Origin: Armatimonadota bacterium
GTDB lineage: Bacteria > Armatimonadota > UBA5829 > DSUL01
Length of the DNA: 64,000 nucleotides
Reading direction: 5' to 3'
Assembly (NCBI GenBank): GCA_025998755.1
Contig: AP024674.1
Location: 1,602,162 to 1,666,161, forward strand
In this document: positions 1-48,614 of the stretch, piece after piece
Numbering within the stretch: position 1 is the first letter of the stretch
Layout of the letters: each line of letters begins with the position of its first letter
Notes under the pieces: generated by a model
What the model was told of the DNA's origin: nothing
Seen by the model: only the letters and a program-made list of their open reading frames with translations
The model's database searches: none
Translations under genes and position numbers: made by a program

Positions 1-143
1 GATGTGTGTCGAGCGGCTCCGAGGTAAGGCCTGTGATCAGGCCAAGAAGCCCGGAGGACGTCGTGGTTTTCTGAAACGCGGTAAGAGCCCGCCCCTGCGC
101 GCCTGCCGGGGCAGGCAAAAGGTGAACCGGCCTGAAAAGGCTC
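1..143. other. Left-edge noncoding segment with hairpins
   Basis: No convincing gene lies left of the protease promoter. The segment holds two perfect hairpins: a 6-bp stem at 28-33/38-43 with a TGAT loop and a 6-bp stem at 101-106/111-116 followed by four A. A GGTAAGAG string at about 80-87 and GGTGAACC at about 121-128 recall conserved loops of RNase P RNA, but the rest of that RNA is not recognisable. It may be the end of a structured RNA that begins outside the window, or only the leader of the next gene. Confidence 0.3.
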
Positions 144-172
144 TTGACCGGAAAGGGTCTGGCTGGTATACT
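144..172 (+). promoter_or_regulatory. Sigma-70 promoter for the S8 protease gene
   Basis: A TTGACC -35 box (144-149) is separated by 17 bases from a TATACT -10 box (167-172). The match and spacing are close to the housekeeping consensus. Transcription would start near 179 and give a leader of about 77 nt before the protease start at 256. Confidence 0.7.
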
Positions 173-255
173 GCAACTGCTTCGCGACTGCATCGAGCCT
201 ATGGAGCTTGCGCAGGTCGCGCGGAGGAGGGTTGACGGAAAGGAGACCATCCCTC

Positions 256-3200: not shown

Positions 3201-4860
3201 CTACTCCGTGGATAACAGCAACAACACGGAACCGACCATCTCGACGACGGTAAACCTGGATTCCCAAGCGCCGGCCAGTGTGCTGCGGGTGGGTACGCCC
3301 AGAGTCTTCTCCTCCGGCACGGAGAAGCTCACCAACGCGGGCTTTGAGTCCCTGTTGACGGGGTGGGATGTCTCTGGCGCCGTGACGACCGTTACCAGTC
3401 CGGTGCGCTCCGGGAGCCGCGCGGCGATGGTGGGCGGCAGCGCCGCTGGCACGCTGAGCCGCGACGTCGCCATCAGTGCCTCGGCCACCCGGGCCATCGC
3501 CTCGGCCTGGGTGCGGGCGACCGGCGGTGGCGGCCTGTTCGCATCCTATAGCGCTTCCATCGTGGATCCGGACACAGGGGAGGTTCTGGACGCAGGCATC
3601 TCCGGGTCGTCCAGCAACATCAACGAGTGGACGCAGGTGTTGTGGGACATCACCCGCTTCCGCGGCAAGACGGTCCGGTTGCGCTTCAGTGCCAACTCTT
3701 TGCTCTCGGGGTATCCCACACTGTTTGTGGACGATGTCTCGGTGAGGGAGAACGCCAACCTCTACATCACGCCTTCAACGTCGCTGCAGATCCGTTCCTT
3801 CGACCACGTGGGCGTTGACGTCTATCAGCGCAGCATTGATGGCGGTGCTTATGCGGATGGCCAGACGTTCTCTATCGCCACCGCGGGACTGAGGAATGTG
3901 GCCTACCGCGCGCGCGACCTGATGGGCAAGACGGAGACGGCGACCACCACGCAGATCAATGTGGATAACGCCGGACCTTCGGGCTCCGTGCTGATCAACG
4001 GAGGCGCCACGTTCACCACGTCCAAGAACGTGACGCTGACGCTGAGCGCCTCGGACGGCGCCGGTGTAACGCTGATGCGTCTGCGCAATGCCGGTGACGG
4101 GTTTGGAGCCTGGCAGGCTTACTCCACGTCAAAGGCCTGGGTATTGACCGACGGAGGCGGCACGAAGACCGTTTACGTCCAGTATCAGGATGCACTCGGC
4201 AACATATCGCCGGAGTATTCGGATTCCATCGAATACATTCCGCCGGCGTCCACGCCCATCGGCGAGGCGAAGCTGCTGGGTCCGCACCCGGTGGCCGTGT
4301 CGCTGACGGATAAGCGGGTCAGCGGTGTATTCACGGCCAAGAAGATGCTCTACATCCAGGAGGCCAACCGCTCCGCCGGCATCAAGGTGAACGTGGGCAC
4401 GCTGTCGCCGTCGCCGGCGATCGGTCAGTTCGGAAGCTTCGAAGGAGTGATTCAGCTGGATTCGAATCAGGAGCCCGAGCTCTACCTGACCAGCTTCACG
4501 CTGGGAAGCGCCGGACCGGCTCCCGTGCCGGTGGGCCTGATGAACCGTGAACTGGGCGGCGGCCCGTGGGGTGATTACATCCCTGGCGTGACAGACGGCC
4601 GCGGACTGCATAACATCGGACTGCTGGTGCGCACGTGGGGCAAGGTGACGGCCCGCGACACCATCGGGGCGACCATCCGCATTGACGACGGCTCCAACCT
4701 GCCGGGCGGTGGCGTTCTGGTGGATATGAGTCAGGCCGGCGCCCTTCCCGCTCTGGGAGCCACGGTGCAGGTGACCGGGAACCTGGGATGCGTCCTGGAA
4801 GGATCAGCCGTCAGACCGATTGTCCGGGCCAGGAACTCCGCCGACGTGACAGTGTTCTGA
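256..4860 (+). CDS. Secreted multi-domain subtilisin-like (S8) serine protease
   Basis: A 1534-residue secreted protease. The ATG at 256 is chosen because a GGAAAGGAG ribosome site ends ten bases upstream and the protein then opens with a signal peptide (hydrophobic core to about residue 23, ending before CAQE). A charged, helical region to about residue 190 is probably the inhibitory propeptide. The catalytic triad is visible: Asp249 in MDTGVD, His293 in GHGTHVAG and Ser475 in GTSMAAPH. After the peptidase come a CARDB/DUF11-like domain (~655-765), two copies of a jelly-roll, carbohydrate-binding-like domain (about 788-920 and 1021-1168, each ending in a VDDVS(I/V) motif), Ig-like segments, and a C-terminal double OB-like module (1335-1534) that recurs in the protein at 36892-39450. 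It probably cleaves proteins outside the cell; the C-terminal domains may bind glycans or the cell surface. Monocistronic: own promoter and terminator. Confidence 0.93.
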   Translation: MGSFARILMLAFACVALAASTPCAQELAEDGTPYPSLEQSSAEVALSRVRIGQSLVPRLSSNESIPVIISFVHQPSTEIAEEEQAAFSDALREREAEALAIHRKYSTGARAATAEEAKALAAHEASLYTKADRAKLQKIVTELKQLKDQMRSRILQRTREAIAAEQSEVATFVRGLGGTVSYTYDFENTVAARVPGRAISAVANHPLVRYVVEDQKTEAHLDISAPAMGVQTFWNAGETGGVWYNATMDTGVDTGHPNMGRTGGWWQVVRHTTAAGDPNYNDNPSSTDDLQGHGTHVAGIMNSNHTTWRGVAFGSTRSTNLKAGWRTYDGRGSMYQSDAMSAMNWGLSNATIDVVNLSFGASDPMTADDDDYTRFWDALIHVHNIVLTKSAGNEGGTSETLTSPAGTYNGIVVANLDDRGTLTRTDDVINSGSSRGPTPNDRKKPDLAAPGTTINAPNDNWEGTAPDFVNMTGTSMAAPHVGGAATLLHDVGITDPRAVKAMLINTADFLSGQTTWNNSAGWGYVNLDRAYLRRSNWFLHAVTPRNTTGEYRLYRVPNPAIGDKTTMVWNRRVNWNGASYPTTWHALSDLNLRYYVEANGAAHSSSLSGIDNVEQVIASTTQPLIIRAYSWSTSFAGGVSSETYALAVPPGTVAVNGPSLAAGATSSSYSPPLNAKFRVLLRVTNSGDINAPNCNITISLPAGVQLVSGSLTTNAGSAPAGGQTDTVEVWLRATTSGTKTVNVTGSCDAFGITWPVSASSFTINPGPADNVAPYSTLQIGSVGYRTGGVELISNGGFESNWAGWVTSRTAAIETGSAASGTRNAKLGPGSGTASQTLTISNSASRAFLSFSYKSSAGVLTGVSCTIRDGSGNFLVTAFYTTGSQTTWRNVTVDVSRFKGQTVQVRFASSGGIFGDSTMWVDDVSIKEGETVWVDNAAATMTLRSTDDAAGVDFSSYQVAGGSWLVYSSPFTLAQEGSNSVKYYSVDNSNNTEPTISTTVNLDSQAPASVLRVGTPRVFSSGTEKLTNAGFESLLTGWDVSGAVTTVTSPVRSGSRAAMVGGSAAGTLSRDVAISASATRAIASAWVRATGGGGLFASYSASIVDPDTGEVLDAGISGSSSNINEWTQVLWDITRFRGKTVRLRFSANSLLSGYPTLFVDDVSVRENANLYITPSTSLQIRSFDHVGVDVYQRSIDGGAYADGQTFSIATAGLRNVAYRARDLMGKTETATTTQINVDNAGPSGSVLINGGATFTTSKNVTLTLSASDGAGVTLMRLRNAGDGFGAWQAYSTSKAWVLTDGGGTKTVYVQYQDALGNISPEYSDSIEYIPPASTPIGEAKLLGPHPVAVSLTDKRVSGVFTAKKMLYIQEANRSAGIKVNVGTLSPSPAIGQFGSFEGVIQLDSNQEPELYLTSFTLGSAGPAPVPVGLMNRELGGGPWGDYIPGVTDGRGLHNIGLLVRTWGKVTARDTIGATIRIDDGSNLPGGGVLVDMSQAGALPALGATVQVTGNLGCVLEGSAVRPIVRARNSADVTVF

Positions 4861-4885
4861 TCCGGTAACACCACCCTTCCAATCC

Positions 4886-4926
4886 AAGAGGGGAAAGCCT
4901 GGCGAAAAGGCTTTCCCCTCTTTTTT
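4886..4926 (+). terminator. Rho-independent terminator after the S8 protease
   Basis: A perfect 15-bp stem (4886-4900 with 4908-4922) encloses a 7-nt loop and runs into six T. It sits 25 bases after the protease stop and is the strongest terminator in the window. Confidence 0.92.
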
Positions 4927-5038
4927 GGCTTTCAAGCCAGCATCAGCTCGAAGAATTCCGCCGGCAGGCCCGGCCTCACGCTACACCTTTTCAAGCCCCG
5001 GCCGCTCCCGGAGAACACTGTGTGAGCCGGCCGAGGAA

Positions 5039-6829
5039 TCAGGCGGGCGAAGGAGGCTCCTCGTCCAGCCGGAACTGCATGGCATACATCTGGGAGTAGA
5101 CACCATCAGCCGACAGCAGGGTGTGGTGGTCACCGATCTCCACGATGCGGCCGTGCTCCAGCGCCACGATCTGGTCCGCATGCTTCACCGTGGACAGGCG
5201 ATGGGCAATGACGAAGGTGGTGCGCCCCTCCATAAGACGGTCCATGGCGCGGTGGATGAGGTATTCACTTTCGGAGTCCACGCTGCTCGTGGCCTCGTCC
5301 AGTATCAGAATCCGAGGGTCGGCCAGAATGGCGCGTGCGATGGCAACCCGCTGCTTCTGACCACCCGAGAGCTTGACGCCCCGCTCGCCGATCTGAGTGT
5401 CATAACCGTTCGGCATCTCCGTGATGAATTCGTGGGCATTGGCTGCCTTCGCCGCCTGCTCGATCTCCTCATCTGTGGCGTCCAGTTTGCCGTAGCGGAT
5501 GTTCTCCTTCACCGTACCATTGAACAGGAAGGTATCCTGCAGGACCATTGCGATCTGGCTGCGCAGTTCGGACTGCCGGACGCTTCGGACGTCCACGCCG
5601 TCTATCAGCACCCTGCCCTGAACGGGATCATAGAAACGCGGAATGAGGTTGACCAGGCTGGTCTTGCCTGCGCCGCTGCGGCCAACCAGAGCAACGATCT
5701 GCCCCGGACGCGCCCGCAGACAGATGTCTTTCAGAACCTCCTCGCCGTCCTCGTAGCGGAACCAGACATGGTCGAACTCCACCTCGCCCCGGATGCGGCC
5801 GAGCGGCACCGGGTCCGGGGGATCCTTGATGGCCGGCTCCTCGTCAATGATTTCGAAGATCCGCTCCGCGGCGGCAAGCGAACGCTGGATTGTGTCGTTG
5901 ATGCGCGCCAGGCTCCCGACTGGCTGATACAGCATTCCCAGATAGCTGGTGAAGACCACAAGGGTACCCATGGTGGCCTCTCCGCGCAGAATGAGCACTG
6001 GCCCCACCACCCAGACTGCGATGTGTCCCAGCCGGACCAGCATATCCACGGACGGGAAGAAACTGGTCCACATCCGCACGGCACGGACGCGCTCATCGTA
6101 GTAGTTCTCCGCGTCGCGGCGGAAGTTCTCGAACTCGTAGTCCTCTCGGGCAAAGGCCTTCACCACCCGCACCCCGCTGATGCGCTCCTGGATGCCGGCG
6201 TTGATTTCACCCAGGCGCTCCCGTACGGCACGGTAGATGCTCTTGATGCGCCGGGCGAACCGGAACCCGGCGTAGAACAGAATGGGCACGGGCACAAGGG
6301 CGATGATGGAAAGGAGGGGAGAAATGAGGAACATCACCACGCACATCGCCACCATCTTGATGACGTCGGAGACCAGCGTGTCCGCGGCGTGGTTTACGAA
6401 CTCCTCCACCACCTGGGTGTCGCTGGTCACCCGGCTCATGATCTCGCCGGTCTGGCGCGAGTCGAAAAAGCTAACCGAGAGCTGCTGCAGGTGGCGATAA
6501 ACGTCCTTGCGCAGGGTCAGGATGAGCTTTTCGCCCAGCACGTGCATGATGTAGCCCCGCGCGAACGAAAGCAGGCTATTCAGGGCGTAGACTCCCGCCA
6601 ACAGAAGCGCAAGGAAGATCAGGAGACGGATGCGGGCCCCGGCCTCGCCAGCGGCCAGGATGACGTGGTCGGTGATGCGTCCGTAGATGAGAGGCGGGAC
6701 CAGCGCCACGAGCCCCAGCCCGATGTTGGAAGAGATTCCCAGCGCCAGCGCGACGCTGTGCGGCCGCAGATATCGCAGTAGCCTCAGGAATGCCGCCCGC
6801 CTGTTCCTGGGCACGTGCCTGTCGTCCAT
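5039..6829 (-). CDS. ABC exporter half-transporter, MsbA/multidrug type
   Basis: A 596-residue half-transporter with a fused six-helix membrane domain (about 1-330) and nucleotide-binding domain (about 345-590), the usual size for the ABCB/MsbA family. The ATPase is complete: Walker A GRSGAGKT, Q-loop, signature LSGGQKQR, Walker B ILILDEATS and H-loop AHRLS. It should work as a homodimer in the inner membrane, exporting a lipid, peptide or drug. The substrate cannot be told from sequence; MsbA-like lipid export is only one option. The ATG at 6829 has an AGGA site nine bases upstream; an in-frame TTG just before it (6832) is possible. It stands alone, convergent with the protease and upstream of a repeat-containing gap. 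Confidence 0.92.
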   Translation of the reverse strand: MDDRHVPRNRRAAFLRLLRYLRPHSVALALGISSNIGLGLVALVPPLIYGRITDHVILAAGEAGARIRLLIFLALLLAGVYALNSLLSFARGYIMHVLGEKLILTLRKDVYRHLQQLSVSFFDSRQTGEIMSRVTSDTQVVEEFVNHAADTLVSDVIKMVAMCVVMFLISPLLSIIALVPVPILFYAGFRFARRIKSIYRAVRERLGEINAGIQERISGVRVVKAFAREDYEFENFRRDAENYYDERVRAVRMWTSFFPSVDMLVRLGHIAVWVVGPVLILRGEATMGTLVVFTSYLGMLYQPVGSLARINDTIQRSLAAAERIFEIIDEEPAIKDPPDPVPLGRIRGEVEFDHVWFRYEDGEEVLKDICLRARPGQIVALVGRSGAGKTSLVNLIPRFYDPVQGRVLIDGVDVRSVRQSELRSQIAMVLQDTFLFNGTVKENIRYGKLDATDEEIEQAAKAANAHEFITEMPNGYDTQIGERGVKLSGGQKQRVAIARAILADPRILILDEATSSVDSESEYLIHRAMDRLMEGRTTFVIAHRLSTVKHADQIVALEHGRIVEIGDHHTLLSADGVYSQMYAMQFRLDEEPPSPA

Positions 6830-36891: not shown

Positions 36892-39450
36892 CTACGGCAC
36901 TGTCACCTTCCTCCACGATGTCGTCACCATGCGCTCTGTGCCGCCAGCGTCCCTGTAGCGCAGGGTCAGCTTCACGAAGAACGATGACAGATCCGTGGTG
37001 AACTGCAGGTCGCGCTCCAGAGTTCCGCCCATCGGCAGGTCTCCGTTCCCGAACGCCAGCGGAGATCCCTCCGAGGCCGGAGTGCCTATCACCACGGAAG
37101 TGGGAGACACCTGAATCCCGACGCACCGCACCTCGGTGGCCGGTCCGCCCGTGTTCCCCAGCTGCGCCGTTACCGTCACGCTGCCACCGGACCGCGACAC
37201 CACAGGGAACTCCAGCGTGAACGCCGGAAGCGCCGCACTCGGAGTCTGGAACGAATACTCCGCCGACGTGGTGGTTATGTTCGTATAGTAGTCTTTCGAC
37301 CTAACCACGAAGAAATAGGTGGTCCCCGGCGTCAGGCCTGTCAGGTTCACGATGTGCCCCGTCACGAAGTCCGGCCCGTCCACGGTCTGCGTGTAGTTGC
37401 CGCTCTCCGTTCCCAGGAGCACCTGCGAGCTGGACTGCCTGTCTGTGCTCCACGCGATGCTGGCTGTGGTGGCAGTGATGTTGGACACCTGGATATTGGA
37501 GATGATGGGCCCCGTGTTCTCGGGGAAGATGTCGCCCTCGCGGCGCGGCCGCAGCACCGGACGGAGCTGATCTCCATCCTTCTCGCAGGAGACCAGCGCC
37601 TTCAGAGTGACCACGGAGCCAACAGGCGGCGCGGCGGCGCCCTCCGGCAGAAGCACCTTCAGGTCATACTTGCCCGCTCCCTCGCCCAGCACGAAGCTGT
37701 CGGCAGCGGCGCTCATCACGATTCCGGTCACCTTCACGAACAGCCCGATGGCGTTGAGGCCGGCGCCGCCCGCCATTCCCTTCTGACCGGCACCCGTCAC
37801 CGGATCATAGAAGAAGTCGCCGCTGTGCAGAGCCCGAAGGTTGGTGACCAGCGGCTCCACTGTCCCGGACGCCACCCTAACCACACGGCTCGCCCGGATG
37901 ATACGCTCGCCGTTGCTATCCGTGTCCAGGGTTCCGGTGACGTTCACCCGCTCCCCTTCGAATGCCCCCATCTCCGTCACGCGGATGCCGCTTGCGCGGT
38001 CGAGCGACGCCACATACATCCCATCACTGAAGAGGCCCGTGACCGCCACGCCCTCCGTGCCGCCCAGCTCCACCTCGGCGCCGTCCGGCAGCAGCCTGGC
38101 CTGCCCGATGGTCTTCTCGCCTGCTGCGATCTCTTCGTAGATCAGCGTGTATTGGCCGGTGCTGTTGTAGTCGAAGATATGAAGCTTGTGCTCCCTGCGC
38201 ACCGGCTGTCCCACCAGCCGGATGGTGCGGTGCGTGGTCCAGGCGTTGTCGTCCAGACGCACCTCCCGGCCGTCGGAGCGCAGCACCTTTTTCAGGCGGT
38301 AGCGCTCCTGCCCCGGCTCCTCGGCCCGGATGTAGACGAACCCGGACGGTACGATGGCCGTCAGCAAAGCCTGCATCTTGGACGGACTGATGAACCCGTC
38401 TATCACCGGATTCAGCCCGATGTTCACCGGCGCGGTGGTCCCGTCGCTGTTGTAAAGCGTGTCCGGGTAGTGATCCGCGTCCGGGACGTCGTTGACCAGG
38501 AAGTCCGGCTTAAAGTCGTCGGTCGGGTCCTCCACCCGAACCACGTGGTTCAGCTCGTGGATGTTGACGCTGTCAATCAGCGACAGACGAGGGTCTCCCA
38601 AACCATCAATATGTTCGAATGTGGCCTTGTATTCTACGAAACGCCCCTGCAGGGTGCTGGTCATCATCCAGCGCGCCACCGCGGACTTTCCGGGTTCCAG
38701 ATCTCCCAGATTCACCGAGAGCGACGGCGACACCATGCTGGTGTTGACCTGCGTTCCGATGATCTTAAAGTCAATGAGCAGACCTTTCTCGTTGTCCACG
38801 ATCTCGGGCTGAGAAGACGTGATGCGGACGTTGCGCGCCACCCCCTTGCCCCGGTTGGTCATCAGCAGACCCAGAGGGAACGGCTCCGCCGGCTCGATCT
38901 GCGGGGTGAACGGGTCGTCGGAATACACATCCCGCACCAGGAAGTAGTCCAGATACAGCAGCGGGTCCGGACGCACCGTGATGCGCGCCGGAAACAGCGG
39001 GATGCTGACCTGCGTATCCCCCTGCCTGTATTCCAGAAGACCGCCGATGAAGTAGTCCTGCGGCTGATCAGGGGCCGCCTCGCGGTTCGGGATGATGGTC
39101 CACACCGCCCGGGCAGTAGCGCCGGGCGCAATAGTCCCGTTGCCGTCAACATCGCTGATGCCCGTTAGCTCCGGCGGCCGAATACCGAACCGGTCGTTGG
39201 CGCTGTTATCCTGCTGGTCTGTGATCAGGATTGCAACCAGCACGTTCTGAAGCGCCACGTTCTCCGGCAGATTGTTGATCTCCAGCGTGGCCCGGAACGC
39301 AGTGCGCGTCAGGGCAACCTCCTGGCTGATTTTGATGCGCACGCGCGCGCAGACTCCCACCTCCTCCGGCAACAGGTCGGCGGCGGCACCGGCCGCGAGG
39401 ACCGGAACGGCGATCAGGACGAACAGAAGGATGCGCACCATTCTCGACAT
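36892..39450 (-). CDS. Secreted multi-domain surface protein (double OB-like and FN3 modules)
   Basis: An 852-residue exported protein of no named family. Signal peptide: MVRILLFVLIAVPVLAAGAAA. Residues ~25-440 look like successive beta-sandwich domains of the CARDB/DUF11 kind. Residues ~448-637 form the double OB-like module (IGQARLLPDG, DRASGIRV, GLNAIGLFVKVTG, then an RPVLR end) also found at the C-terminus of the S8 protease. Residues ~650-735 are a fibronectin-III/purple-acid-phosphatase-like domain, followed by a final beta domain. No catalytic motif is seen; a structural or binding role at the cell surface is likely. It begins 16 bases after the giant gene and is the last of three co-directional surface genes. 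ATG at 39450 (39441 also possible). Confidence 0.8.
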   Translation of the reverse strand: MSRMVRILLFVLIAVPVLAAGAAADLLPEEVGVCARVRIKISQEVALTRTAFRATLEINNLPENVALQNVLVAILITDQQDNSANDRFGIRPPELTGISDVDGNGTIAPGATARAVWTIIPNREAAPDQPQDYFIGGLLEYRQGDTQVSIPLFPARITVRPDPLLYLDYFLVRDVYSDDPFTPQIEPAEPFPLGLLMTNRGKGVARNVRITSSQPEIVDNEKGLLIDFKIIGTQVNTSMVSPSLSVNLGDLEPGKSAVARWMMTSTLQGRFVEYKATFEHIDGLGDPRLSLIDSVNIHELNHVVRVEDPTDDFKPDFLVNDVPDADHYPDTLYNSDGTTAPVNIGLNPVIDGFISPSKMQALLTAIVPSGFVYIRAEEPGQERYRLKKVLRSDGREVRLDDNAWTTHRTIRLVGQPVRREHKLHIFDYNSTGQYTLIYEEIAAGEKTIGQARLLPDGAEVELGGTEGVAVTGLFSDGMYVASLDRASGIRVTEMGAFEGERVNVTGTLDTDSNGERIIRASRVVRVASGTVEPLVTNLRALHSGDFFYDPVTGAGQKGMAGGAGLNAIGLFVKVTGIVMSAAADSFVLGEGAGKYDLKVLLPEGAAAPPVGSVVTLKALVSCEKDGDQLRPVLRPRREGDIFPENTGPIISNIQVSNITATTASIAWSTDRQSSSQVLLGTESGNYTQTVDGPDFVTGHIVNLTGLTPGTTYFFVVRSKDYYTNITTTSAEYSFQTPSAALPAFTLEFPVVSRSGGSVTVTAQLGNTGGPATEVRCVGIQVSPTSVVIGTPASEGSPLAFGNGDLPMGGTLERDLQFTTDLSSFFVKLTLRYRDAGGTERMVTTSWRKVTVP

Positions 39451-39466
39451 CTCTCGTGAGCTCTTT

Positions 39467-42400
39467 CTAGAACACATCGACCCTGGTCCTTATCACCTTG
39501 CCGCCGTATTTCCTGATGACGGCATCACCATTGTCCTCGGGCCGTTCATCCTTACCGGGTTTCTTCACCGGCGGCCCGACAATCGACGTGGAGGTTGCCG
39601 CCAGCGAGTTTCCACCCGATGGCAGCGGACCGCAGGAACCGCCGCTCAGGCTGATCCCCCACCCGCCGCCGATGACGGGACGGAAGCCGGGACCCAAACC
39701 GCCGCTGCCACCAGAGCCTCCACCGGGCCAGGTACCTGAAGTATCTGAAGACGGAGGCGGCGCGGGAATGGGCAGACACTTGGCGGCATCTATCAGAGCA
39801 CCCGTGTCTCCCAGGATGGCCTCGGTCATCTTGCAGATGCAGCACGGAGCGCCTGTCAGAGCGCTGAGCGACTCACACGCGTACTGGAACAGGCAGCGGA
39901 TGGCATCCGGACACTTGGCCAGACCCACCCCGTCAACGATCCCACTGGCGCAGACCGCGACGTCAAAGCCGCACGAGACGGCATCCCATATGGCCTTTGC
40001 GACATTAAAGATGGTCGTGTCTATGGACTCGCTCCGCCAGCGGTTACCATCGCAGACGTAGTAGTAGATCACCTCACCATTGATGGAGAGGTCGCACGGC
40101 TCGTCCCACTCTCCGGCGGTGCGCACCCCTTCCGCCTGTGCCGTCGCCTGCAGCGCTTCAGCACCTGCGAGCGTCGCCACCTGCGGCACACCCGGCGGCC
40201 AACCGTCCGCCCTGCGCCGATAAAGTACCGGCACCACGATGGAGCTCTGTGCCGGGAGAACGCCGATGTCCCGAATCAGCGGGATGATGTAATAGTCCGG
40301 GTGCTGCCCGAAGTTGATCTGCGTTCCCAGCGCGGCGATCAGGCCATGGTTGGTGATGGTGAACTCCACGACGGAGGTCTGGCCCTCCAGCACGGGCACG
40401 AAGGCATATGGAGGATCCACCGTTACCACAGGCGCCGGCACGTGCGTCTCGAAAACGGCCTCGATGGAGATCTTGTAGCGGTCCTGGATCTCGATCTGCT
40501 CCACCGTCCACGTATAGGTGACGAGCTGCCTCGGCATGAATGCGATGACCTCGGTCAGCTTGCCCGCTTCCACGAGCACCGGCTGCTTGAAGGTGCCATG
40601 CCGCTCCGCCCGCACCTCCACGTCGTAGTAACCCTCCGTGATCCCCTCTCGCAGCACGATACCGGACTGGTCCGAGATCTCCTCGAAGACCTTCTGGCCC
40701 GTTATGGAATCGCGCACGATCACGGTGGCGTTGTTCACCCTCGGGGATCCGTCGGCGAAGTAGGTGAACTCGTCGTTGCAATAGATTTTGAGGTCGCCTG
40801 TCAGGTCCGAGATGGCCCGGAAGCGAAAGCCTATCTGTACCCCCGCATTGTTCCCGTTAACAGCCAACGCGCCGTTGTAGGGACCGAGCGGCAGGTCTGC
40901 ATCAGGCCGCAGTGCGAGCGTTATGGTGGCCTTCTCGCCAGGAGCCAGCGTCCCGATGGTGGACGGGCTGAGCAGGCTCAGCCAAGGCACGGCCGGAGCC
41001 AGAACCTGCAGGCCCGTTGCGGGAACGCCGCCCTGGTTCATCACTTCGCATTCAACGATGGTCTGCCTGCCGCGCGGCATTCCCGTCTCCAGGAAGCCAG
41101 GGTTCACCACCAGCTTCGGCTGGCGCGGGATGACATTCAGGTTGAAGCGCACCGCGGCAGTCCGACCCTCCGCCGTCTCGAATACCACCTCCGGAGCAGC
41201 CTGCAGCACGGACTCATCCGAAGCCAGCACGGAGTAGCCCACCCTGACGCCTGTGAGGGCGTTCAGAGACGGCGGAACCCCCGTAAGCTGGATGGATACA
41301 TTGGAAGGCGCGCCCGTCACCCGGAAGCTCAAGCCGGTCAGATTGGTGGTCCCCAGGTTGCTCAGAGTAATCTGGCCGGTCACCGGCACGGTCGGATTGA
41401 TGTTCAGCGGTATGGGATCCGGGGCCGCCACCAGTTGCTGCGCCAAAGCCACCACGATGGGCTGCGCAACGGTGTTGTCCTCCTCTTTCAGCTCACTGAC
41501 GGCACCTTCCGCGTCCGTCTTGGCGATCAGATAATACACCCCCGGCGCCACGATGGGCAGGCGGGCGTTCTGCGTCTGAGTGTAGGAGAACGGGGCAGCC
41601 AGCCCGGAGGGCACCGTGAGATCCACAATGAGCGTATCGCCCTCATCAAGCGCCTCATCCGTGGACAGATAGACCCTGTCCTTCCAAGGACCGGCGGCGT
41701 CGCCGAACGCCTGGTTCTTCACCGTCCAGGTGACCGAGAAATCTTGCTGAGCGGCCACCGATACGGGAGCGTTCAACGACTGGATCAGCAGGTTCGGCGG
41801 ACGGATCTCGGAAGTGGTCAGCGTGGCATCGTCGCTCGTCACCGTCTGGCAACCATCACTGGAGACGACCCGGAAGTGATACGTGGTGGACGGCGACAGT
41901 CCGGTGATGGTCATCCTGTGAGCGGTCTTGGGCGCGGTGTCCACGAACGTGCTCTGGCCATACTGATCCGTCAGGCCATACTCCACCTGCGACGTACACG
42001 GCTCGCTGGTGATCCAGCTCACGATGACACTGGTGGAGCGCGGCGAGACCGAGACGTTCCACAACGTGGGCGCGATCGTATCCACCCGGAAATTGCGGAC
42101 GGCGGGTGTGGCGTCCTCATTGCCGGAAGTATCCCGAGCCTTCACTCGCAGCACGTGCGGCCCTTCCGCCAGCCCCGTGAACTGCCGGCAGGTCTCCGTG
42201 GACCACGCGGACCAGTCACCGTCGTCCAGCTTCCAGGAGTACTGAAGCTGGTTGACGGGAGTGGCGTTGTCGGAGCCCGACCAGCAGAACTGCGGATCCG
42301 GCGAGCACGCCTTGCCGCCCTCCACGGGACCGGAGGTGAACCAGGTGTTCGGCACATCCTGATCGGCCGGTGTGCGGAAGGTCGCCACCTCCGACTCCGA

Positions 42401-45400
42401 CTGGCGCTCGCAGGTATCCCTGCTTATCACGCGATAGTAATAGAGCGTGTCCGGCGACAGCCCCGTAATGGTAACGCTGTGGCTGGTCCTGACGCCTCCG
42501 ATTGCCGGGCTGGCCAGGCCCAGAGAAGGATCCGTGCCATACTCCACTCTGGAGGTGGCCTGCCGGTCCGTCAGCCAGGTGATGGTGGCCTGCGACGGCT
42601 GCGCCGAGGCCGTGACATTGGTGATGACGGGCGCAGTCAGCGACACAAGGAAAGTACGGGTGGCCGGTGTGGGATCCACATTGCCGCTGCTGTCATGAGC
42701 CCTCACCGAAAACGTATGGCTGCCAGCGGACAGAGCCGTGAACTGATGGCAGGTCTCGGAGGAAGGTTCGCTCCAGACTCCGCCGTCCAGCCTCCAGGAG
42801 TAGCGCAGCTGCGCCACCGGAGTGGTGTTGTCGGAACCGCTCCAGCAGAAGCTGGCCGAAGACGAACACAGCGTGGAGCCCTCTTGTGGCCCCTGAGTCA
42901 GGAATGTGTCCGGCAGACCTGTATCCACCAGCGTGCGCACCGTGGCGGTCTCAGAGACCGACTCGCGCCCGCACGCATCCTTCGACCGCACGCGGAAGTA
43001 GTGCAACCGATCCGGCTCAAGCCCGGTCACCGTCATCGAATGCGACGTCCGCAGCGATGTGTTCACCGTTGTGAACGACCCCAGCGAAGCAGACGTGCCG
43101 TACTCCACCTGTGACGTGGCCGGCTCGTCCGTGGTCCAAGTGACGATGATGTCACTCTGCCCGGACACCGCCGAGACGCCTGTAATGACAGGCGGGTTCA
43201 GGTCCACCGTGAAGCTGCGTATGGCCGGGGTTTGATCCTCCTTGCCGGACGGATCCCGCGCCGCCACCTCGAAGGTGTGCGCGCCGTGCTTCAGGCCGGT
43301 GAATGCCTTGCTGGTAGCCGCGTCAAACGCCGACCACTCGCCGCCGTCCAGCCGCCAGCGATACTGCAGCTGGCTTACGTGCGCGGTGTCATCCGACCCT
43401 GTGAACGAGAATGTGGCGTTCCCTTCGCACAGCCTGGCTCCGTCCCCAGGTCCTCCCGTGATGATGGTCTCCGGCGGGAATACGTCCGGCGTTTCCACCG
43501 TGGTCTGGACGGTGTTGCTGGAGGCCCCGGACATCAGGTTGCTGCCGGATACATACGCAGTGTTGGAGATGACTGTACCGTTCGGCACCGCGCTCACCGT
43601 GACATCGAACGTGATGGTAGCGCTTGCGCCAGCAGCCAGCGTGCCAACATTGACCCCCGCAGCCACGGCCGGCTGGCTTCCCTGGTCCGGCACGGGACTT
43701 CCGTTGAGGCGCGTGGAGCCGGACACATAGGCGCAGTTCGCCGGGATGGGGTCCGTCACGCGGACGCCAAGAGCCACCGCCTGACTGTTGTTGGAGCAGG
43801 TGATGGTGTAGGAGATGACATCTCCGCGAGCAGCGGTGGAGAGGCTGGCCGACTTGGTCAGGGTCAGCGTGGCCACCGCCACCGTGAAGCTGCGCTCGAC
43901 CGGCTGGCCGACATTGCCCGCCAGATCCCTGGCCCGGACGCTGAAGGTATGCGGGCCGTCCGACAGGGTAAACACGGCACTGGTTGCGCTGGAGTACGCG
44001 GACCATTCGCCAGCGTCCATCCGGTAGCTGTAGACAAGCTGCGAGGAAGGGGTTACGTTGTCGGAGCCGCTCCAGAAGAACGAGACGTTACGGAGCACCG
44101 TACTCCCCTCCGAAGGACCGCCCGTAAGGAAGACCTGAGGCGGCGTGTTGTCCACGATGTTCAGCGTGGCCGTAGGAGTGTAGCGCTGCCCGGTAACGCT
44201 GTTATACAGGTAAACCGTGTGCTGGCCGGCCTGGATGAACACGCCCGGCGACACTTCCCCGTTCCAGATCGCCGTGAAAGCTCCGCTGCCGTCACCAGAC
44301 AGGGGAAGCGTCTTCAGGGTGCCGATGCGCGCTTCCAGATCCAGCGACACCCCTCCACCCACCTCGGCCGTGATGGTGATCGTGCGCCCTCCTCCGGGCT
44401 CGAACGGGTTGGGATTCAATATCAGCCCAGTGACCGAGGCAACGGTGAGGCTGCCCGTCTGCGGGAACTGCACACCGGCGGAAGTGTACACTCGGATGGT
44501 GTAGACGCCAGCAGAGGCCAAATCACCGCTGATGCGACCGTCCCAACTGGCTACGTAAGTCCCCTCGGATCCGACCTCCGCAAAAGATACCTCGGCATAC
44601 GAGCCGGAGGGCGCGAAGATACGAGCATACAGCCCGGACTGCCCGGCATCTGCCCGGAGGGTCAGCGTGACCTGATTTGCCCCGGTCGGCGCAAAGGGAT
44701 CCGGGTTGGCCTCCACGCTGAAGACAGCAGGGCGAACGGTGACATCTTTATAGTGATAATATGGCTTCTGACTGGCTCGAGCGTATGGCCTAAGGCGGAA
44801 GTTCCCGGCCCCAGCGAAGTTGCCGTATTCGTCCTTGCCGTCCCACGCTCCCGTATACGAACCGCTTGCTTCCACGAGCTGGATCTTGCGTGTCACCACT
44901 CCCGTGGCCAGGTTCGTCACCCAGACATCCAGGTCCAGCCCCGGTTCACCCGGAACGGTGATGTTCAGAACGTTGCCGCCGCCCGGCGTGAATTCGTTCG
45001 AGGCGGTGGAGATGTTGTGGGCGCCGCGGACGTCGAAGTAGCGGGACGTCTGAGCCTGGATGCCGTCCGCGTTGCGCACCAAGACTTGGGCCCGGTAATA
45101 GGGGTGCGCCGGGATATAGCCCTGGTAAGACCAACGTTGCACTCCATCCCAGGTACCGCGATACACTCCCGGAGACACCTCAGTGAGAGCGGTCCAGTCC
45201 AGCGAGGTGCCCAGCCACTCGTGACCAATGTAATACTGCAGACTCTGTCCCGGGTCGGAGTTGACAGTGATTGTGACCACGTTCTCGGGGGTGCCGTCAG
45301 GCACGAAGGGATCCCGATCCACGCTGATGGAATCCACGTCGAACAGCAAGTTGACGCTGGCGGTGGGGTAGTAACGGACATCGCTGGTGGCGTTGTAGAC

Positions 45401-47710
45401 GTAGGCAGTATATGACCCGGGCCTCTGATATTCACCCGAGTCATCCTTGCCATCCCAAACAAAGCTGTAGGTTCCGTCCCCGTTATCCGTCATCAGCGCA
45501 GTGCGCACCAGGGTAGACGAGCCGTAGCGGTAAATTCTGATGCGCACCGGGAAGCCGGAATAGCCCCGCGCAGTGAATGTTACTGTGGCGCCTCTGCGGG
45601 GGTTGAACGAACTGTTGCTCCGATCCAGGCGGTCAATCCCCCGGACTTTGAAGTAGCCCCGGACCAGGGATTCCACGTAGGACGCGTCCCATACCACCAC
45701 CTGGCAAAGGTTGTAACTGTGGTCCTCCCCGTAGCCGCTGTAAGTGTTGCCCATCAGCCCGCTGTAGTTATAGCGGCTGACTCCGTTCCAGGTTACCTGA
45801 TAGATCCCCGGCGTCTCCGTCTCCTGCAGCGGCTCCTGGTACACCATCCAGCCCAGCCAGTTGTTGTAGAGCCCATACCTCAGGCCGGTAAGGCCAGGCG
45901 GAGCGTGAACTGTGATGGTGGCCAGTTGCGAGCCGGTTCCATCCGGGGAATAGGGGTCAGGGTCAACGGTGATGGCGGAGACCGAGAACGTGATGTTCAC
46001 CCCCACCGTCGGGTAATAGCGGCGGTCGCTGGCGGCATTATAAATGTAAGCCGTGTAAGCTCCCGGGGCTACGGCCTGCCCGCCGTCATCAGTCCCGTTC
46101 CAGACAAAGGTGTAGGTGCCATCACCGTTGTCCGTCATCATCGCCGTCCGCACAAGCGTGGACGGGCTGTTGCGATAGATCCGGATCCGTACGTTGAAGC
46201 CGGAATAGCCGCGGGCGGTGAACGTGACATTGCCGGTCACGGCGGCAAAGGAGGATTTGTCGCGCTCCAGACGGTCCACCCCCCGGACCTTGAAGTAACC
46301 GCGGACGATGGACTCCTGTCCGTTGGCGTCCCACACCACCACTTCGCAACGGTTGGAGCTGTGGTCCTCCCCGTAGCCGCTGTAGGTGTTACCCATCATC
46401 CCGTTGTAGTTATAGCGGCTGACTCCGTCCCAGCTCGCCTGGTAGACCCCCGGTGTGCCGCTCTCCTCCAGTGGCTCCTGGTAAACCACCCAACCCAGCC
46501 AGTTGTTGAAGATGCCATACTTCAGGCCGGTCTGTCCGGAGGCGGCATTCACCGTGATGGTTGCAGTTTGGCCAGGTCCTCCCGTTCCATCCGGGATGAA
46601 CGGGTTCGGCGCAACGGAGATGGCATCCACGGTATAGAGCAGGATCAGCGACGTGGACGAGCTGACATAAGGAATCCCGCTTGAAGCATTGACGACCTGC
46701 AGGCGGTACTCTCCGGTCGGCTGGATCTCGTTGGATGCATTCCGCCCGTTCCAGGTGAAGACATATTGACCGTTGCCGGCGGCGGTCATTGGAAACTCAC
46801 CCACCAGCGCACCGTTGGCTTGGCGCGTGATGCGCACCAGCAGGCTCAACCCGTCGGAGCCAGTGGCGGTAAAGGTGGCGAACTCCCCCGAACGCGGCTC
46901 GATCTGGGATTTGTCGCGGCGGAGCGACCAGACACCGCGAACCTTGAAATATGCGCTGGCGGGTGAGGTTAACTGGGTCCCGTCGGGTGCCCAGAGAACC
47001 ACATAACACTGGTTGTAAGAGTGATCCTCGCCGTATCCCCCGTAGGTCGAGCCCATGTACCCTGAGTAGCTGGAACGGGAAACCCCGTTCCAGGAAACCT
47101 CGTACACTCCAGGGGAGGAGGGTGCCGGAAGGTTCTCATTGTACACCATCCAACCCAGCCAGTTGTTGTAGATTCCCCACTTGTAGTTGCCGCTCTCCAG
47201 CGGGGTGGCGTTGATGCGGATCTGCACCACATTGCCCGCCGTGCCGTCCGGCACAAACGGCGACGGGGTGATCTCCGCCGAGATGAAGCGCGGTCTGCGG
47301 CTGATGACCTCCACATCCCCCCACGGGCCGATATAGCTGGAGGTGGCCAGGTTGAAAACGCGGAAGCTGTATACGCCGGTCTCAACGACCTGGTTGCTGT
47401 CGTTCTTGCCGTTCCAGACGCACGAATAGACCCCCGGAGATGTCTCGGTCAGAGCGATGGAGGATCGGACCACCGTGGTCCGGTCGGCGCGCGTTACGCG
47501 CATGGCCAGGTTGGCGACTCCTGCAGTGCCTTGCGCCGTCAAGGTTGTGGACTGATTCTCGTCCGCGTAAAAGGCGGAAGGGTTGGCACTGACAGAAGTT
47601 ATGCTGGTCTGCCCCGTGGCCGGCGCACCCCAACAAAGCGCCAGAATCAAGGCCACGATTGCCACAGCCGGCAGACAGCTTCTCTTGATCCGTTCCTTCT
47701 CCTCAATCAC
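39467..47710 (-). CDS. Giant secreted repeat protein (2747 residues)
   Basis: One of the largest genes such a genome is likely to hold. The GTG at 47710 is chosen: AAGGG stands eight bases upstream and a signal peptide follows at once (IKRSCLPAVAIVALILALCW...ATGQ); the frame is open to 47830. In order: ~140-990, four ~215-residue units of FlgD-like Ig domains, each with PDGT and, in the first three, NNWLGW and GYGEDHS motifs; more FlgD-like domains; ~1190-1280 a GSDN...DGEWS unit; ~1290-1400 a DUF11 domain; ~1410-1967 three ~190-residue units pairing a GSDxTxPVxQLxY domain with an FN3-like domain; CARDB-like domains; a Cys-rich stretch (~2590-2680, CCICKM); a Gly-rich linker; and a basic tail. 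No enzyme motif, no sortase or PEP-CTERM tail. Probable extracellular adhesin, scaffold or sheath component. Confidence 0.85.
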   Translation of the reverse strand: MIEEKERIKRSCLPAVAIVALILALCWGAPATGQTSITSVSANPSAFYADENQSTTLTAQGTAGVANLAMRVTRADRTTVVRSSIALTETSPGVYSCVWNGKNDSNQVVETGVYSFRVFNLATSSYIGPWGDVEVISRRPRFISAEITPSPFVPDGTAGNVVQIRINATPLESGNYKWGIYNNWLGWMVYNENLPAPSSPGVYEVSWNGVSRSSYSGYMGSTYGGYGEDHSYNQCYVVLWAPDGTQLTSPASAYFKVRGVWSLRRDKSQIEPRSGEFATFTATGSDGLSLLVRITRQANGALVGEFPMTAAGNGQYVFTWNGRNASNEIQPTGEYRLQVVNASSGIPYVSSSTSLILLYTVDAISVAPNPFIPDGTGGPGQTATITVNAASGQTGLKYGIFNNWLGWVVYQEPLEESGTPGVYQASWDGVSRYNYNGMMGNTYSGYGEDHSSNRCEVVVWDANGQESIVRGYFKVRGVDRLERDKSSFAAVTGNVTFTARGYSGFNVRIRIYRNSPSTLVRTAMMTDNGDGTYTFVWNGTDDGGQAVAPGAYTAYIYNAASDRRYYPTVGVNITFSVSAITVDPDPYSPDGTGSQLATITVHAPPGLTGLRYGLYNNWLGWMVYQEPLQETETPGIYQVTWNGVSRYNYSGLMGNTYSGYGEDHSYNLCQVVVWDASYVESLVRGYFKVRGIDRLDRSNSSFNPRRGATVTFTARGYSGFPVRIRIYRYGSSTLVRTALMTDNGDGTYSFVWDGKDDSGEYQRPGSYTAYVYNATSDVRYYPTASVNLLFDVDSISVDRDPFVPDGTPENVVTITVNSDPGQSLQYYIGHEWLGTSLDWTALTEVSPGVYRGTWDGVQRWSYQGYIPAHPYYRAQVLVRNADGIQAQTSRYFDVRGAHNISTASNEFTPGGGNVLNITVPGEPGLDLDVWVTNLATGVVTRKIQLVEASGSYTGAWDGKDEYGNFAGAGNFRLRPYARASQKPYYHYKDVTVRPAVFSVEANPDPFAPTGANQVTLTLRADAGQSGLYARIFAPSGSYAEVSFAEVGSEGTYVASWDGRISGDLASAGVYTIRVYTSAGVQFPQTGSLTVASVTGLILNPNPFEPGGGRTITITAEVGGGVSLDLEARIGTLKTLPLSGDGSGAFTAIWNGEVSPGVFIQAGQHTVYLYNSVTGQRYTPTATLNIVDNTPPQVFLTGGPSEGSTVLRNVSFFWSGSDNVTPSSQLVYSYRMDAGEWSAYSSATSAVFTLSDGPHTFSVRARDLAGNVGQPVERSFTVAVATLTLTKSASLSTAARGDVISYTITCSNNSQAVALGVRVTDPIPANCAYVSGSTRLNGSPVPDQGSQPAVAAGVNVGTLAAGASATITFDVTVSAVPNGTVISNTAYVSGSNLMSGASSNTVQTTVETPDVFPPETIITGGPGDGARLCEGNATFSFTGSDDTAHVSQLQYRWRLDGGEWSAFDAATSKAFTGLKHGAHTFEVAARDPSGKEDQTPAIRSFTVDLNPPVITGVSAVSGQSDIIVTWTTDEPATSQVEYGTSASLGSFTTVNTSLRTSHSMTVTGLEPDRLHYFRVRSKDACGRESVSETATVRTLVDTGLPDTFLTQGPQEGSTLCSSSASFCWSGSDNTTPVAQLRYSWRLDGGVWSEPSSETCHQFTALSAGSHTFSVRAHDSSGNVDPTPATRTFLVSLTAPVITNVTASAQPSQATITWLTDRQATSRVEYGTDPSLGLASPAIGGVRTSHSVTITGLSPDTLYYYRVISRDTCERQSESEVATFRTPADQDVPNTWFTSGPVEGGKACSPDPQFCWSGSDNATPVNQLQYSWKLDDGDWSAWSTETCRQFTGLAEGPHVLRVKARDTSGNEDATPAVRNFRVDTIAPTLWNVSVSPRSTSVIVSWITSEPCTSQVEYGLTDQYGQSTFVDTAPKTAHRMTITGLSPSTTYHFRVVSSDGCQTVTSDDATLTTSEIRPPNLLIQSLNAPVSVAAQQDFSVTWTVKNQAFGDAAGPWKDRVYLSTDEALDEGDTLIVDLTVPSGLAAPFSYTQTQNARLPIVAPGVYYLIAKTDAEGAVSELKEEDNTVAQPIVVALAQQLVAAPDPIPLNINPTVPVTGQITLSNLGTTNLTGLSFRVTGAPSNVSIQLTGVPPSLNALTGVRVGYSVLASDESVLQAAPEVVFETAEGRTAAVRFNLNVIPRQPKLVVNPGFLETGMPRGRQTIVECEVMNQGGVPATGLQVLAPAVPWLSLLSPSTIGTLAPGEKATITLALRPDADLPLGPYNGALAVNGNNAGVQIGFRFRAISDLTGDLKIYCNDEFTYFADGSPRVNNATVIVRDSITGQKVFEEISDQSGIVLREGITEGYYDVEVRAERHGTFKQPVLVEAGKLTEVIAFMPRQLVTYTWTVEQIEIQDRYKISIEAVFETHVPAPVVTVDPPYAFVPVLEGQTSVVEFTITNHGLIAALGTQINFGQHPDYYIIPLIRDIGVLPAQSSIVVPVLYRRRADGWPPGVPQVATLAGAEALQATAQAEGVRTAGEWDEPCDLSINGEVIYYYVCDGNRWRSESIDTTIFNVAKAIWDAVSCGFDVAVCASGIVDGVGLAKCPDAIRCLFQYACESLSALTGAPCCICKMTEAILGDTGALIDAAKCLPIPAPPPSSDTSGTWPGGGSGGSGGLGPGFRPVIGGGWGISLSGGSCGPLPSGGNSLAATSTSIVGPPVKKPGKDERPEDNGDAVIRKYGGKVIRTRVDVF
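41810..43480 (-). repeat. Three tandem ~570-bp coding repeats (GSDN + FN3 units)
   Basis: Within the giant gene, three in-frame units begin near 43480, 42920 and 42350. Each encodes a beta domain with a W-S-G-S-D-N-type motif and YSWRLDGG-like strand, followed by an FN3-like domain containing EYG and ITGLSPDT-like strands. Copies are clearly related but diverged. A lone copy of the first half lies near 43870-44145. Confidence 0.8.
44740..47290 (-). repeat. Four tandem ~650-bp coding repeats (FlgD-like Ig units)
   Basis: Units begin near 47280, 46620, 45970 and 45330. The DNA around 46365-46435 and 45720-45790 is nearly identical over some 70 bases (the NYxGxMGNTYSGYGEDHS region), showing recent duplication or gene conversion between units 2 and 3; the unit at 47020-47095 is more diverged and unit 4 lacks the motif. 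Confidence 0.85.
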
Positions 47711-47821
47711 CTGCAGAGCCCTTTCGTCTTCCGCAAATCGTCGCAGAGAGTTCACAGTCGGCATAAACCTTTGCCCATCATTCGGATCCGTGAAATCCGG
47801 CAGCCGCCTGGCCGAACCACG

Positions 47822-47966
47822 CTGGCGCAACAGCGAAAACGGGCAGCCGGTGCGCCAGGGGACACGGTCAGGCCTCTACCCTCCACCCCGCAGCCGGGAA
47901 GCTGCGGGCCTCTCTTTGCGCGTGGCCCTGTCGCGGGCCACCCGTGACGCAAATGTATTGCGCCAG
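47822..47966 (-). other. Highly structured noncoding segment before the giant gene
   Basis: Between the PEP-CTERM gene and the giant gene lie several strong stems: 47887-47894 with 47901-47908 (8 bp); 47922-47928 with 47935-47941 (7 bp), extendable by 47915-47920 with 47948-47953; and CTGGCGCA (47822-47829), which can pair with TGCGCCAG at either 47851-47858 or 47959-47966. Some pairings exclude each other. It may be a terminator of the first gene, a leader of the second, or both. Confidence 0.5.
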
Positions 47967-47967
47967 T

Positions 47968-48513
47968 CTACCGCCGTCTTCTGAGCAGACCGGCAAGAGA
48001 TCCTAACCCGGCCGTCAAGGCGAGCAGAGATGCCGGCTCCGGCACCACCTGAATGGTTATGGGCGGAGAGACGATCTCCGGCGGATTGGCCTGGACCCCG
48101 TCAAAGCTGGCTGACGCGATCAACCGGAACGTGTAGGTTCCGGGCTCGGCATTCCGAAGGTCGAAATGCCCCAGCACGATGCCCGCTCGCTTCCCGGAAG
48201 CAGGCAGCAGGAAGGCCTCCGGCATCTCCATGGCAGGCTCCGGGATCCACAGACGCGCAAACAACCCCGGATCTGGTGGAAACAGGTCGTCCGTCTTCAG
48301 AGTGATGCCGTCAAAACTGAGCGTGTGAGAGGAGTCGTTGTTGAAGACGGAGGCGGAGATGGAGATGGGAGACGCGGCGCCGGCCGCTCCGGTGAAATGC
48401 ACCTTCCCCGCGCCGTTCCCGCCGTGCAAAAGGAAGACCCATTGCCCGAGGCCAGCCACCGAGCGCTGCGATAGCGCAAGGATCACCAGTCCTGCCAGCC
48501 AAGCCACCCTCAT
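47968..48513 (-). CDS. PEP-CTERM sorting-domain secreted protein
   Basis: A 181-residue exported protein. A signal peptide (MRVAWLAGLVILALSQRSVAG) is followed by ~120 residues with a beta-sandwich look, then the C-terminal sorting tag: VPEPASLLALTAGLGSLAG and a run of four Arg. Such tags are recognised and cut by exosortase in the inner membrane, and the protein is then released or attached to exopolysaccharide. No exosortase gene is in the window. The ATG at 48513 has a GAGGGTGAG site; the frame stays open to 48573. It is the first of the three minus-strand surface genes. Confidence 0.87.
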   Translation of the reverse strand: MRVAWLAGLVILALSQRSVAGLGQWVFLLHGGNGAGKVHFTGAAGAASPISISASVFNNDSSHTLSFDGITLKTDDLFPPDPGLFARLWIPEPAMEMPEAFLLPASGKRAGIVLGHFDLRNAEPGTYTFRLIASASFDGVQANPPEIVSPPITIQVVPEPASLLALTAGLGSLAGLLRRRR

Positions 48514-48614
48514 CCAACTCACCCTCTGATTCTGCCCAACAATCCGATTCGGAAGCGTCACATCCAGCGACATAGTCCCACAATGTCACGAACGGAACTC
48601 CTGAATCTGGTATT

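What the first reader, a model, noticed from the sequence alone, without database searches (positions are those of the whole stretch)
36892..48513. Three-gene surface locus built around a 2747-residue repeat protein
A PEP-CTERM protein, a giant exported FlgD-Ig/FN3 protein and an 852-residue companion lie in a row on one strand. None has an enzyme motif. The giant has no sortase, PEP-CTERM or type 9 tail, but has a Cys-rich patch, Gly-rich linker and basic tail of its own, so it may use an unknown anchoring route. The set may form a sheath, stalk or adhesin not yet described.
Basis: partly seen in the sequence, partly recalled or inferred. Interest (0 to 1): 0.7.

Follow-up and report, generated by a model that had tools for sequence, protein, structure and literature searches.

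The report
Split two-gene giant surface protein
The giant repeat protein and its neighbour are the two halves of a long exported protein that is one chain in most other bacteria, and the second half carries a double OB-fold domain that closes dozens of exported proteins in this Armatimonadota lineage and may hold them at the cell surface.

Summary
All three ORFs are real and lie on one strand. The giant and the companion are not two independent new proteins. The giant's tail (T block: CARDB, Ig and PEGA-like domains, conserved Cys pair) and the companion's first 410 residues (C block: β-sandwich domains, no Pfam or NCBIfam family) form one core. In 64 of 80 relatives from Verrucomicrobiota, Planctomycetota, Cyanobacteria and Pseudomonadota, T and C lie in one ORF, within chains of up to 6300 aa. 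In seven they lie in neighbouring ORFs; the other nine contigs are too short to tell. The window belongs to a supported split clade shared with Desulfobacterota and Nitrospirota. The Cys pair is family-wide, so it is not a private anchor; the last ~110 residues look disordered and end in a YGG[KR] peptide shared by split relatives only. The companion also carries a tandem-OB domain with 54 matches in this genome; 46 of 52 ORFs carrying it end with it. It is expanded in 24 of 28 genomes of the class. PEP-CTERM genes are absent upstream of the nearest homologue, yet they precede OB-domain genes more often than chance in two genomes. Most likely this is a split, lineage-specific variant of a widespread but uncharacterised giant surface protein. 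Assembly and anchoring are inferred.

The parts
47968..48573 (-).
   Evidence: TIGR02595 23 bits against cut-off 16 and PF07589 21.4 against 20.7; the genome has 33 PEP-CTERM matches and 3 exosortases
47887..47908 (.). 8-bp-stem hairpin CCCGCAGC...GCTGCGGG between the PEP-CTERM gene and the giant
   Evidence: terminator-like scan; the T-run follows on the + strand only, so it is weak evidence of a terminator for the - strand transcript
39467..47830 (-). giant exported protein, first half of the split core protein (2787 aa; GTG start at 47710 gives 2747 aa with a signal-peptide-like N-terminus)
44153..47605 (-). 11 FlgD-Ig-type repeats (G-x-Y/F-x3-W-N/D-G signature), residues ~76-1226
   Evidence: FlgD_ig 5.9e-36; 11 signature matches
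41807..44152 (-). OmpL47-type, DUF11 and FN3-like units, residues ~1227-2008
40166..41797 (-). CARDB + Ig + T block (Ig, PEGA-like, 'FETHVPAPVVT' Ig), residues 2012-2555; conserved half of the family core
   Evidence: T-block model hits in relatives; AlphaFold2 block means mostly 90-98, dipping around the PEGA/Ig junction
39776..40096 (-). Cys-rich segment, residues 2579-2685; Cys2579 and Cys2593 near-invariant in relatives
39470..39775 (-). Gly-rich then basic tail ending IRKYGGKVIRTRVDVF; predicted disordered; YGG[KR] end shared only with split relatives L053, L054, L058
36892..39477 (-). companion, second half of the split core protein (861 aa; likely start ATG 39450, 852 aa, own signal-peptide-like N-terminus)
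38134..39363 (-). C block: three beta-sandwich, Ig-like domains by strand pattern; no Pfam or NCBIfam family
37528..38100 (-). tandem-OB domain (OB2), about 191 aa, expanded across the class
37243..37500 (-). FN3-like domain (Pfam Pur_ac_phosph_N / fn3)
36895..37242 (-). C-terminal all-beta domain of the companion, no family match
   Evidence: low confidence except last strands

Best explanation
The giant and companion are the two halves of one ancestral exported giant protein, now encoded by two tightly coupled genes. Shown: in other bacteria the T block (giant tail) and C block (companion start) lie in one ORF, separated by a Cys/Gly-rich, often helical linker of very variable length; here, and in a clade of relatives, the chain is broken in that linker and the second half has its own signal-peptide-like start. 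Inferred: both chains leave by Sec, the T and C blocks meet again outside the cell (the variable linker was only a tether), and together they form the base of a long multi-Ig fibre or adhesin whose N-terminal repeats differ between species. Inferred: the companion's tandem-OB domain, which ends about 45 other exported proteins of this genome, mediates retention or docking at the surface, filling the place that dockerin or Ig domains fill after the C block in other phyla. The PEP-CTERM protein encoded upstream may be an exosortase-processed partner; this is the weakest step.
For: T and C in one ORF in 64 of 80 relatives and in neighbouring ORFs in 7; the 9 without T are short or cut contigs. 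Co-occurrence of T and C in the same 7 of 81 genomes. Split clade of 7 rows at 99/88 support, with fused Armatimonadota forms next to it. Variable head domains: FlgD-Ig here, beta-helix in L047, PKD/FN3-like in L044, Calx-beta/RTX in cyanobacteria. Variable domain after C: OB2 in most Armatimonadota homologues, dockerin in several Planctomycetota. OB2: 46 of 52 ORFs end with it and most have a signal-peptide-like N-terminus; 24 of 28 class genomes are expanded. PEP-CTERM gene upstream of an OB2 gene on the same strand: 7 of 33 against 1.2 expected here, 5 of 13 against 0.6 in G011.
Against: No physical interaction was tested; AlphaFold2 was run on each half alone. In this companion the OB2 domain is not terminal (211 aa follow). 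The PEP-CTERM gene is not upstream of the giant in L044. The placement test uses random positions, so general clustering of exported genes could explain part of the PEP/OB2 pairing; in G011 OB2 genes are also enriched on the other side (4 against 0.6). Signal peptides were judged by eye or a simple rule.
Confidence: 0.6

Rival explanations
1. The two proteins are independent exported multi-Ig proteins; the split simply separated two modules that now work apart, each with its own fate (giant secreted to matrix, companion retained by its OB2 domain).
For: Each has its own signal-peptide-like start; the linker between T and C in fused forms varies from about 150 to 880 residues, so a fixed T-C interface is not required.
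Against: Gene order and tight coupling are kept across the split clade, in Armatimonadota, Desulfobacterota and Nitrospirota, and T was not found without C in the genomes checked.
Confidence: 0.25
2. Three-gene surface organelle: the PEP-CTERM protein, giant and companion form a dedicated sheath, stalk or adhesin with a new anchoring route through the giant's basic tail.
For: PEP-CTERM to OB2 gene order is enriched in two genomes; the giant's tail ends in a YGG[KR] peptide shared by split relatives.
Against: The nearest homologue with upstream sequence (L044) has no PEP-CTERM gene upstream; the tail is predicted disordered; the Cys pair is family-wide.
Confidence: 0.1
3. The split is an assembly or sequencing frameshift in a fused gene.
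For: Fused relatives exist in the same class (G007, G003).
Against: The companion has a new signal-peptide-like N-terminus, the long linker is lost, and independent assemblies of several taxa show the same split, some with a shared YGG end.
Confidence: 0.02

Closest known systems
Fused T-C giant proteins of Verrucomicrobiota, Planctomycetota and Cyanobacteria (annotated, where names were seen in plasmid records, as Calx-beta or putative Ig domain-containing proteins)
   Same: T and C blocks at about 50% identity over the C block, CARDB before T, Cys pair, interchangeable head repeats
   Different: one chain with a long Cys/Gly/helical linker; no OB2 domain seen outside Armatimonadota in the relatives examined
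PEP-CTERM/exosortase cargo (PMC1569441)
   Same: the 201-aa upstream gene has the tail; the genome has three exosortases
   Different: the giant and companion have no such tail; that paper says most PEP-CTERM genes are single-gene operons
FlgD hook-cap protein
   Same: FlgD-type Ig domain repeated 11 times
   Different: scores far below the FlgD family cut-off (90 against 230 bits); exported repeat protein, not hook assembly
Proteins ending in dockerin type I
   Same: a domain after the C block in several relatives
   Different: here that place holds tandem OB, FN3 and an unassigned beta domain
OB-fold proteins (RPA14, YgiW/BOF type)
   Same: profile match of OB2 to RPA14 (5e-4) and weakly to YgiW
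   Different: duplicated, exported, C-terminal; no nucleic-acid role implied

Membership tests
T-C giant family (unnamed, defined here) | T block and C block both present and linked | tested here: met
T-C giant family (unnamed, defined here) | single chain | tested here: not met
   two ORFs with 11-bp overlap; split clade
PEP-CTERM (47968-48573) | C-terminal motif above curated cut-off | tested here: met
PEP-CTERM (47968-48573) | exosortase in the genome | tested here: met
   three PF09721 hits
LPXTG sortase substrate | sortase in the genome | tested here: not met
   none found, controls rang
Type 9 secretion cargo | SprA in the genome | tested here: inconclusive
   none found, but nothing rang in controls
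FlgD hook assembly protein | family score above cut-off | tested here: not met
   90.2 against 230 bits
OB-fold (OB2 domain) | match to an OB family or solved OB structure | tested here: inconclusive
   RPA14 at 5e-4 with the profile; Pfam tRNA_anti-codon matches all below cut-off; the AlphaFold2 model is low-confidence over this domain
OB2 as surface-retention domain | removal changes surface retention of carriers | not testable with these tools
   only position and spread shown

The most novel reading that the evidence does not exclude
The tandem-OB domain is an undescribed, class-wide C-terminal surface docking or sorting domain of Armatimonadota that works with PEP-CTERM partner proteins encoded just upstream, and the giant-companion pair is its largest client, rejoined outside the cell from two separately exported halves.
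Probability: 0.25. Interest if true: 0.75.

Novelty: new variant of a known kind. Interest (0 to 1): 0.45.

Why it matters
It ties a puzzling locus to a widespread conserved core without a Pfam or NCBIfam family, shows that the core has been split at least twice, and points to a testable lineage-specific surface domain on about 50 proteins. If OB2 docks proteins at the surface, it would be a further C-terminal attachment device beside dockerin, PEP-CTERM, MYXO-CTERM and type 9 tails.

Tried and rejected
Foldseek gave only generic Ig-chain matches with low TM-scores. Sequence search of solved structures found nothing for the C block and generic prealbumin/Ig hits for the tail. Paper searches found no description of the core or of OB2. 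Plasmid records gave only generic annotations. Private Cys anchor: rejected, since the Cys pair is family-wide. The 'purple acid phosphatase' label: rejected, since only its FN3-like domain is matched. The PEP-CTERM ectodomains near OB2 genes share little beyond the tail, so one conserved partner family is unlikely.

Full report
Observation. The three ORFs exist on the minus strand: PEP-CTERM protein 47968-48573, giant 39467-47830, companion 36892-39477. The giant's N-terminal part is 11 FlgD-Ig-type repeats, then OmpL47-like, DUF11 and FN3-like units, CARDB, further Ig-like domains and a Cys-rich end. No catalytic family was matched. The giant's stop lies 11 bp inside the first companion ATG, or 16 nt before the ATG that gives 852 residues. 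The giant and companion can be read as one transcription unit; the PEP-CTERM gene is 137 bp or more upstream, with a hairpin between. Regulation was not tested.

Relatives. With 80 relatives of the window genome, the giant's last 458 residues and the companion each found their strong homologues in the same seven genomes (G000, G003, G007, G011, G019, G026, G075), side by side or in one frame (contig ends prevent a full check in G003). In G007 and G003 they lie in a single frame, joined by a Cys/Gly-rich and helical linker; G026 has the same layout but its contig holds gaps and broken frames. Phylum-wide, 13 of 291 genomes hold the C block; G221, G227, G229 and G093 are fused, and G114 has linker and C in one frame.

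A scan of genome contigs gave 412 relatives of the C block, 80 of which were kept, from Verrucomicrobiota, Planctomycetota, Cyanobacteria, Pseudomonadota, Desulfobacterota, Nitrospirota and Bacteroidota. HMMs of the T and C blocks placed both in one ORF in 64 of these, in neighbouring ORFs in 7, and found no T in 9, all of which start at or near a contig end. One of the seven, Nostoc L104, breaks elsewhere in the linker and may be a frameshift. Two of the kept loci (L053, L054) are the same contigs as G011 and G019, and L074 the same as G075. A tree of the C block puts the window with six other split or apparently split rows (99/88), among Armatimonadota forms that are mostly fused; L074 is a separate split case, and L071, labelled split, is only a truncated contig. 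L051 lacks upstream sequence, so its split state rests on its signal-peptide-like start. The clade mixes phyla, which suggests transfer between them; the direction was not determined.

Domains. AlphaFold2 gives block means mostly of 80-98 for the C block, with strands arranged as three beta-sandwiches, and little confidence after it. For the tail it gives high confidence for four to five beta domains, about 50 for the Cys helices and under 45 for the last ~110 residues. None of 59 C-block rows matches a Pfam or NCBIfam family across the block beyond isolated TSP3-like and chance hits. Cys2579 and Cys2593 are conserved in 45 and 44 of 46 rows; the aligned Cys at 2664 and 2733 lie in a gappy region and are less certain. 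The end peptide YGG[KR] is shared by the window, L053, L054 and L058 and was not seen at any other ORF end in the loci scanned.

Tandem OB. Companion residues ~460-650 match 54 places in this genome. In 52 ORFs scanned (one protein counted twice, as window 148-4857 and L182), the domain ends within about 25 residues of the stop in 46, and most have a signal-peptide-like start found by a simple rule. The rest of these proteins varies: subtilase, beta-propellers, BNR, FN3, FlgD-Ig. OB assignment rests on weak Pfam matches and a profile match to RPA14 at 5e-4.

PEP-CTERM. The genome has 33 tails above cut-off and three exosortases. No PEP-CTERM gene is upstream in L044; L047 and L045 have an IPEWP/VPEWP-tailed small gene downstream of the fused protein. 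An OB2 gene lies within 4.5 kb downstream on the same strand for 7 of 33 PEP-CTERM tails (1.2 expected; none of 5000 random placements) and 5 of 13 in G011 (0.6 expected, P 0.00015), though in G011 the upstream side is also enriched. The 4.5 kb threshold was set after looking at the own-genome distances and after the G011 positions had been listed, so neither P value is from a fully prior test; the G011 contig lengths were approximated. An earlier two-sided test that shifts the whole PEP set around the chromosome was weaker (11 of 33 within 4 kb against 3.9, P 0.002).

Mechanism. The fused relatives are the main argument for a shared function of the two chains. The linker being the least conserved and most variable part makes it the expected place for a harmless split. 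Reassembly outside the cell, OB2-mediated retention and PEP-CTERM partnership are inferences in falling order of support. PMC10553843 reports a CARDB protein highly expressed by a syntrophic sulfate reducer and discusses it as an adhesin; that gives context, not proof.

Noticed in passing
window 148-4857 (+): A 1570-aa ORF with signal-peptide-like start ends in the tandem-OB domain; another tandem-OB ORF of 1546 aa lies just upstream of it, mostly outside the window (L182).
   Followed up: partly
own genome, 54 places: Tandem-OB C-terminal domain on about 50 exported proteins, no Pfam family; possibly a new surface domain.
   Followed up: partly
own genome and G011: PEP-CTERM genes often sit directly upstream of tandem-OB genes on the same strand.
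   Followed up: partly
L050 giant ORF 2-6727, C-terminal part: Insert with an HDRCC-type Cys/His pattern that recalls phospholipase A2; recalled, not tested.
   Followed up: no
L047 6131-6874, L045 1754-2452: Small exported genes with IPEWP/VPEWP tails (PEP-CTERM-like) downstream of the fused giant.
   Followed up: no
L052 14621-16180 (+): A second, partial C-block copy a few kb downstream of the first.
   Followed up: no
G008, G009, G013, G025: Four class members without the tandem-OB domain at the threshold used, against 24 with many copies.
   Followed up: no
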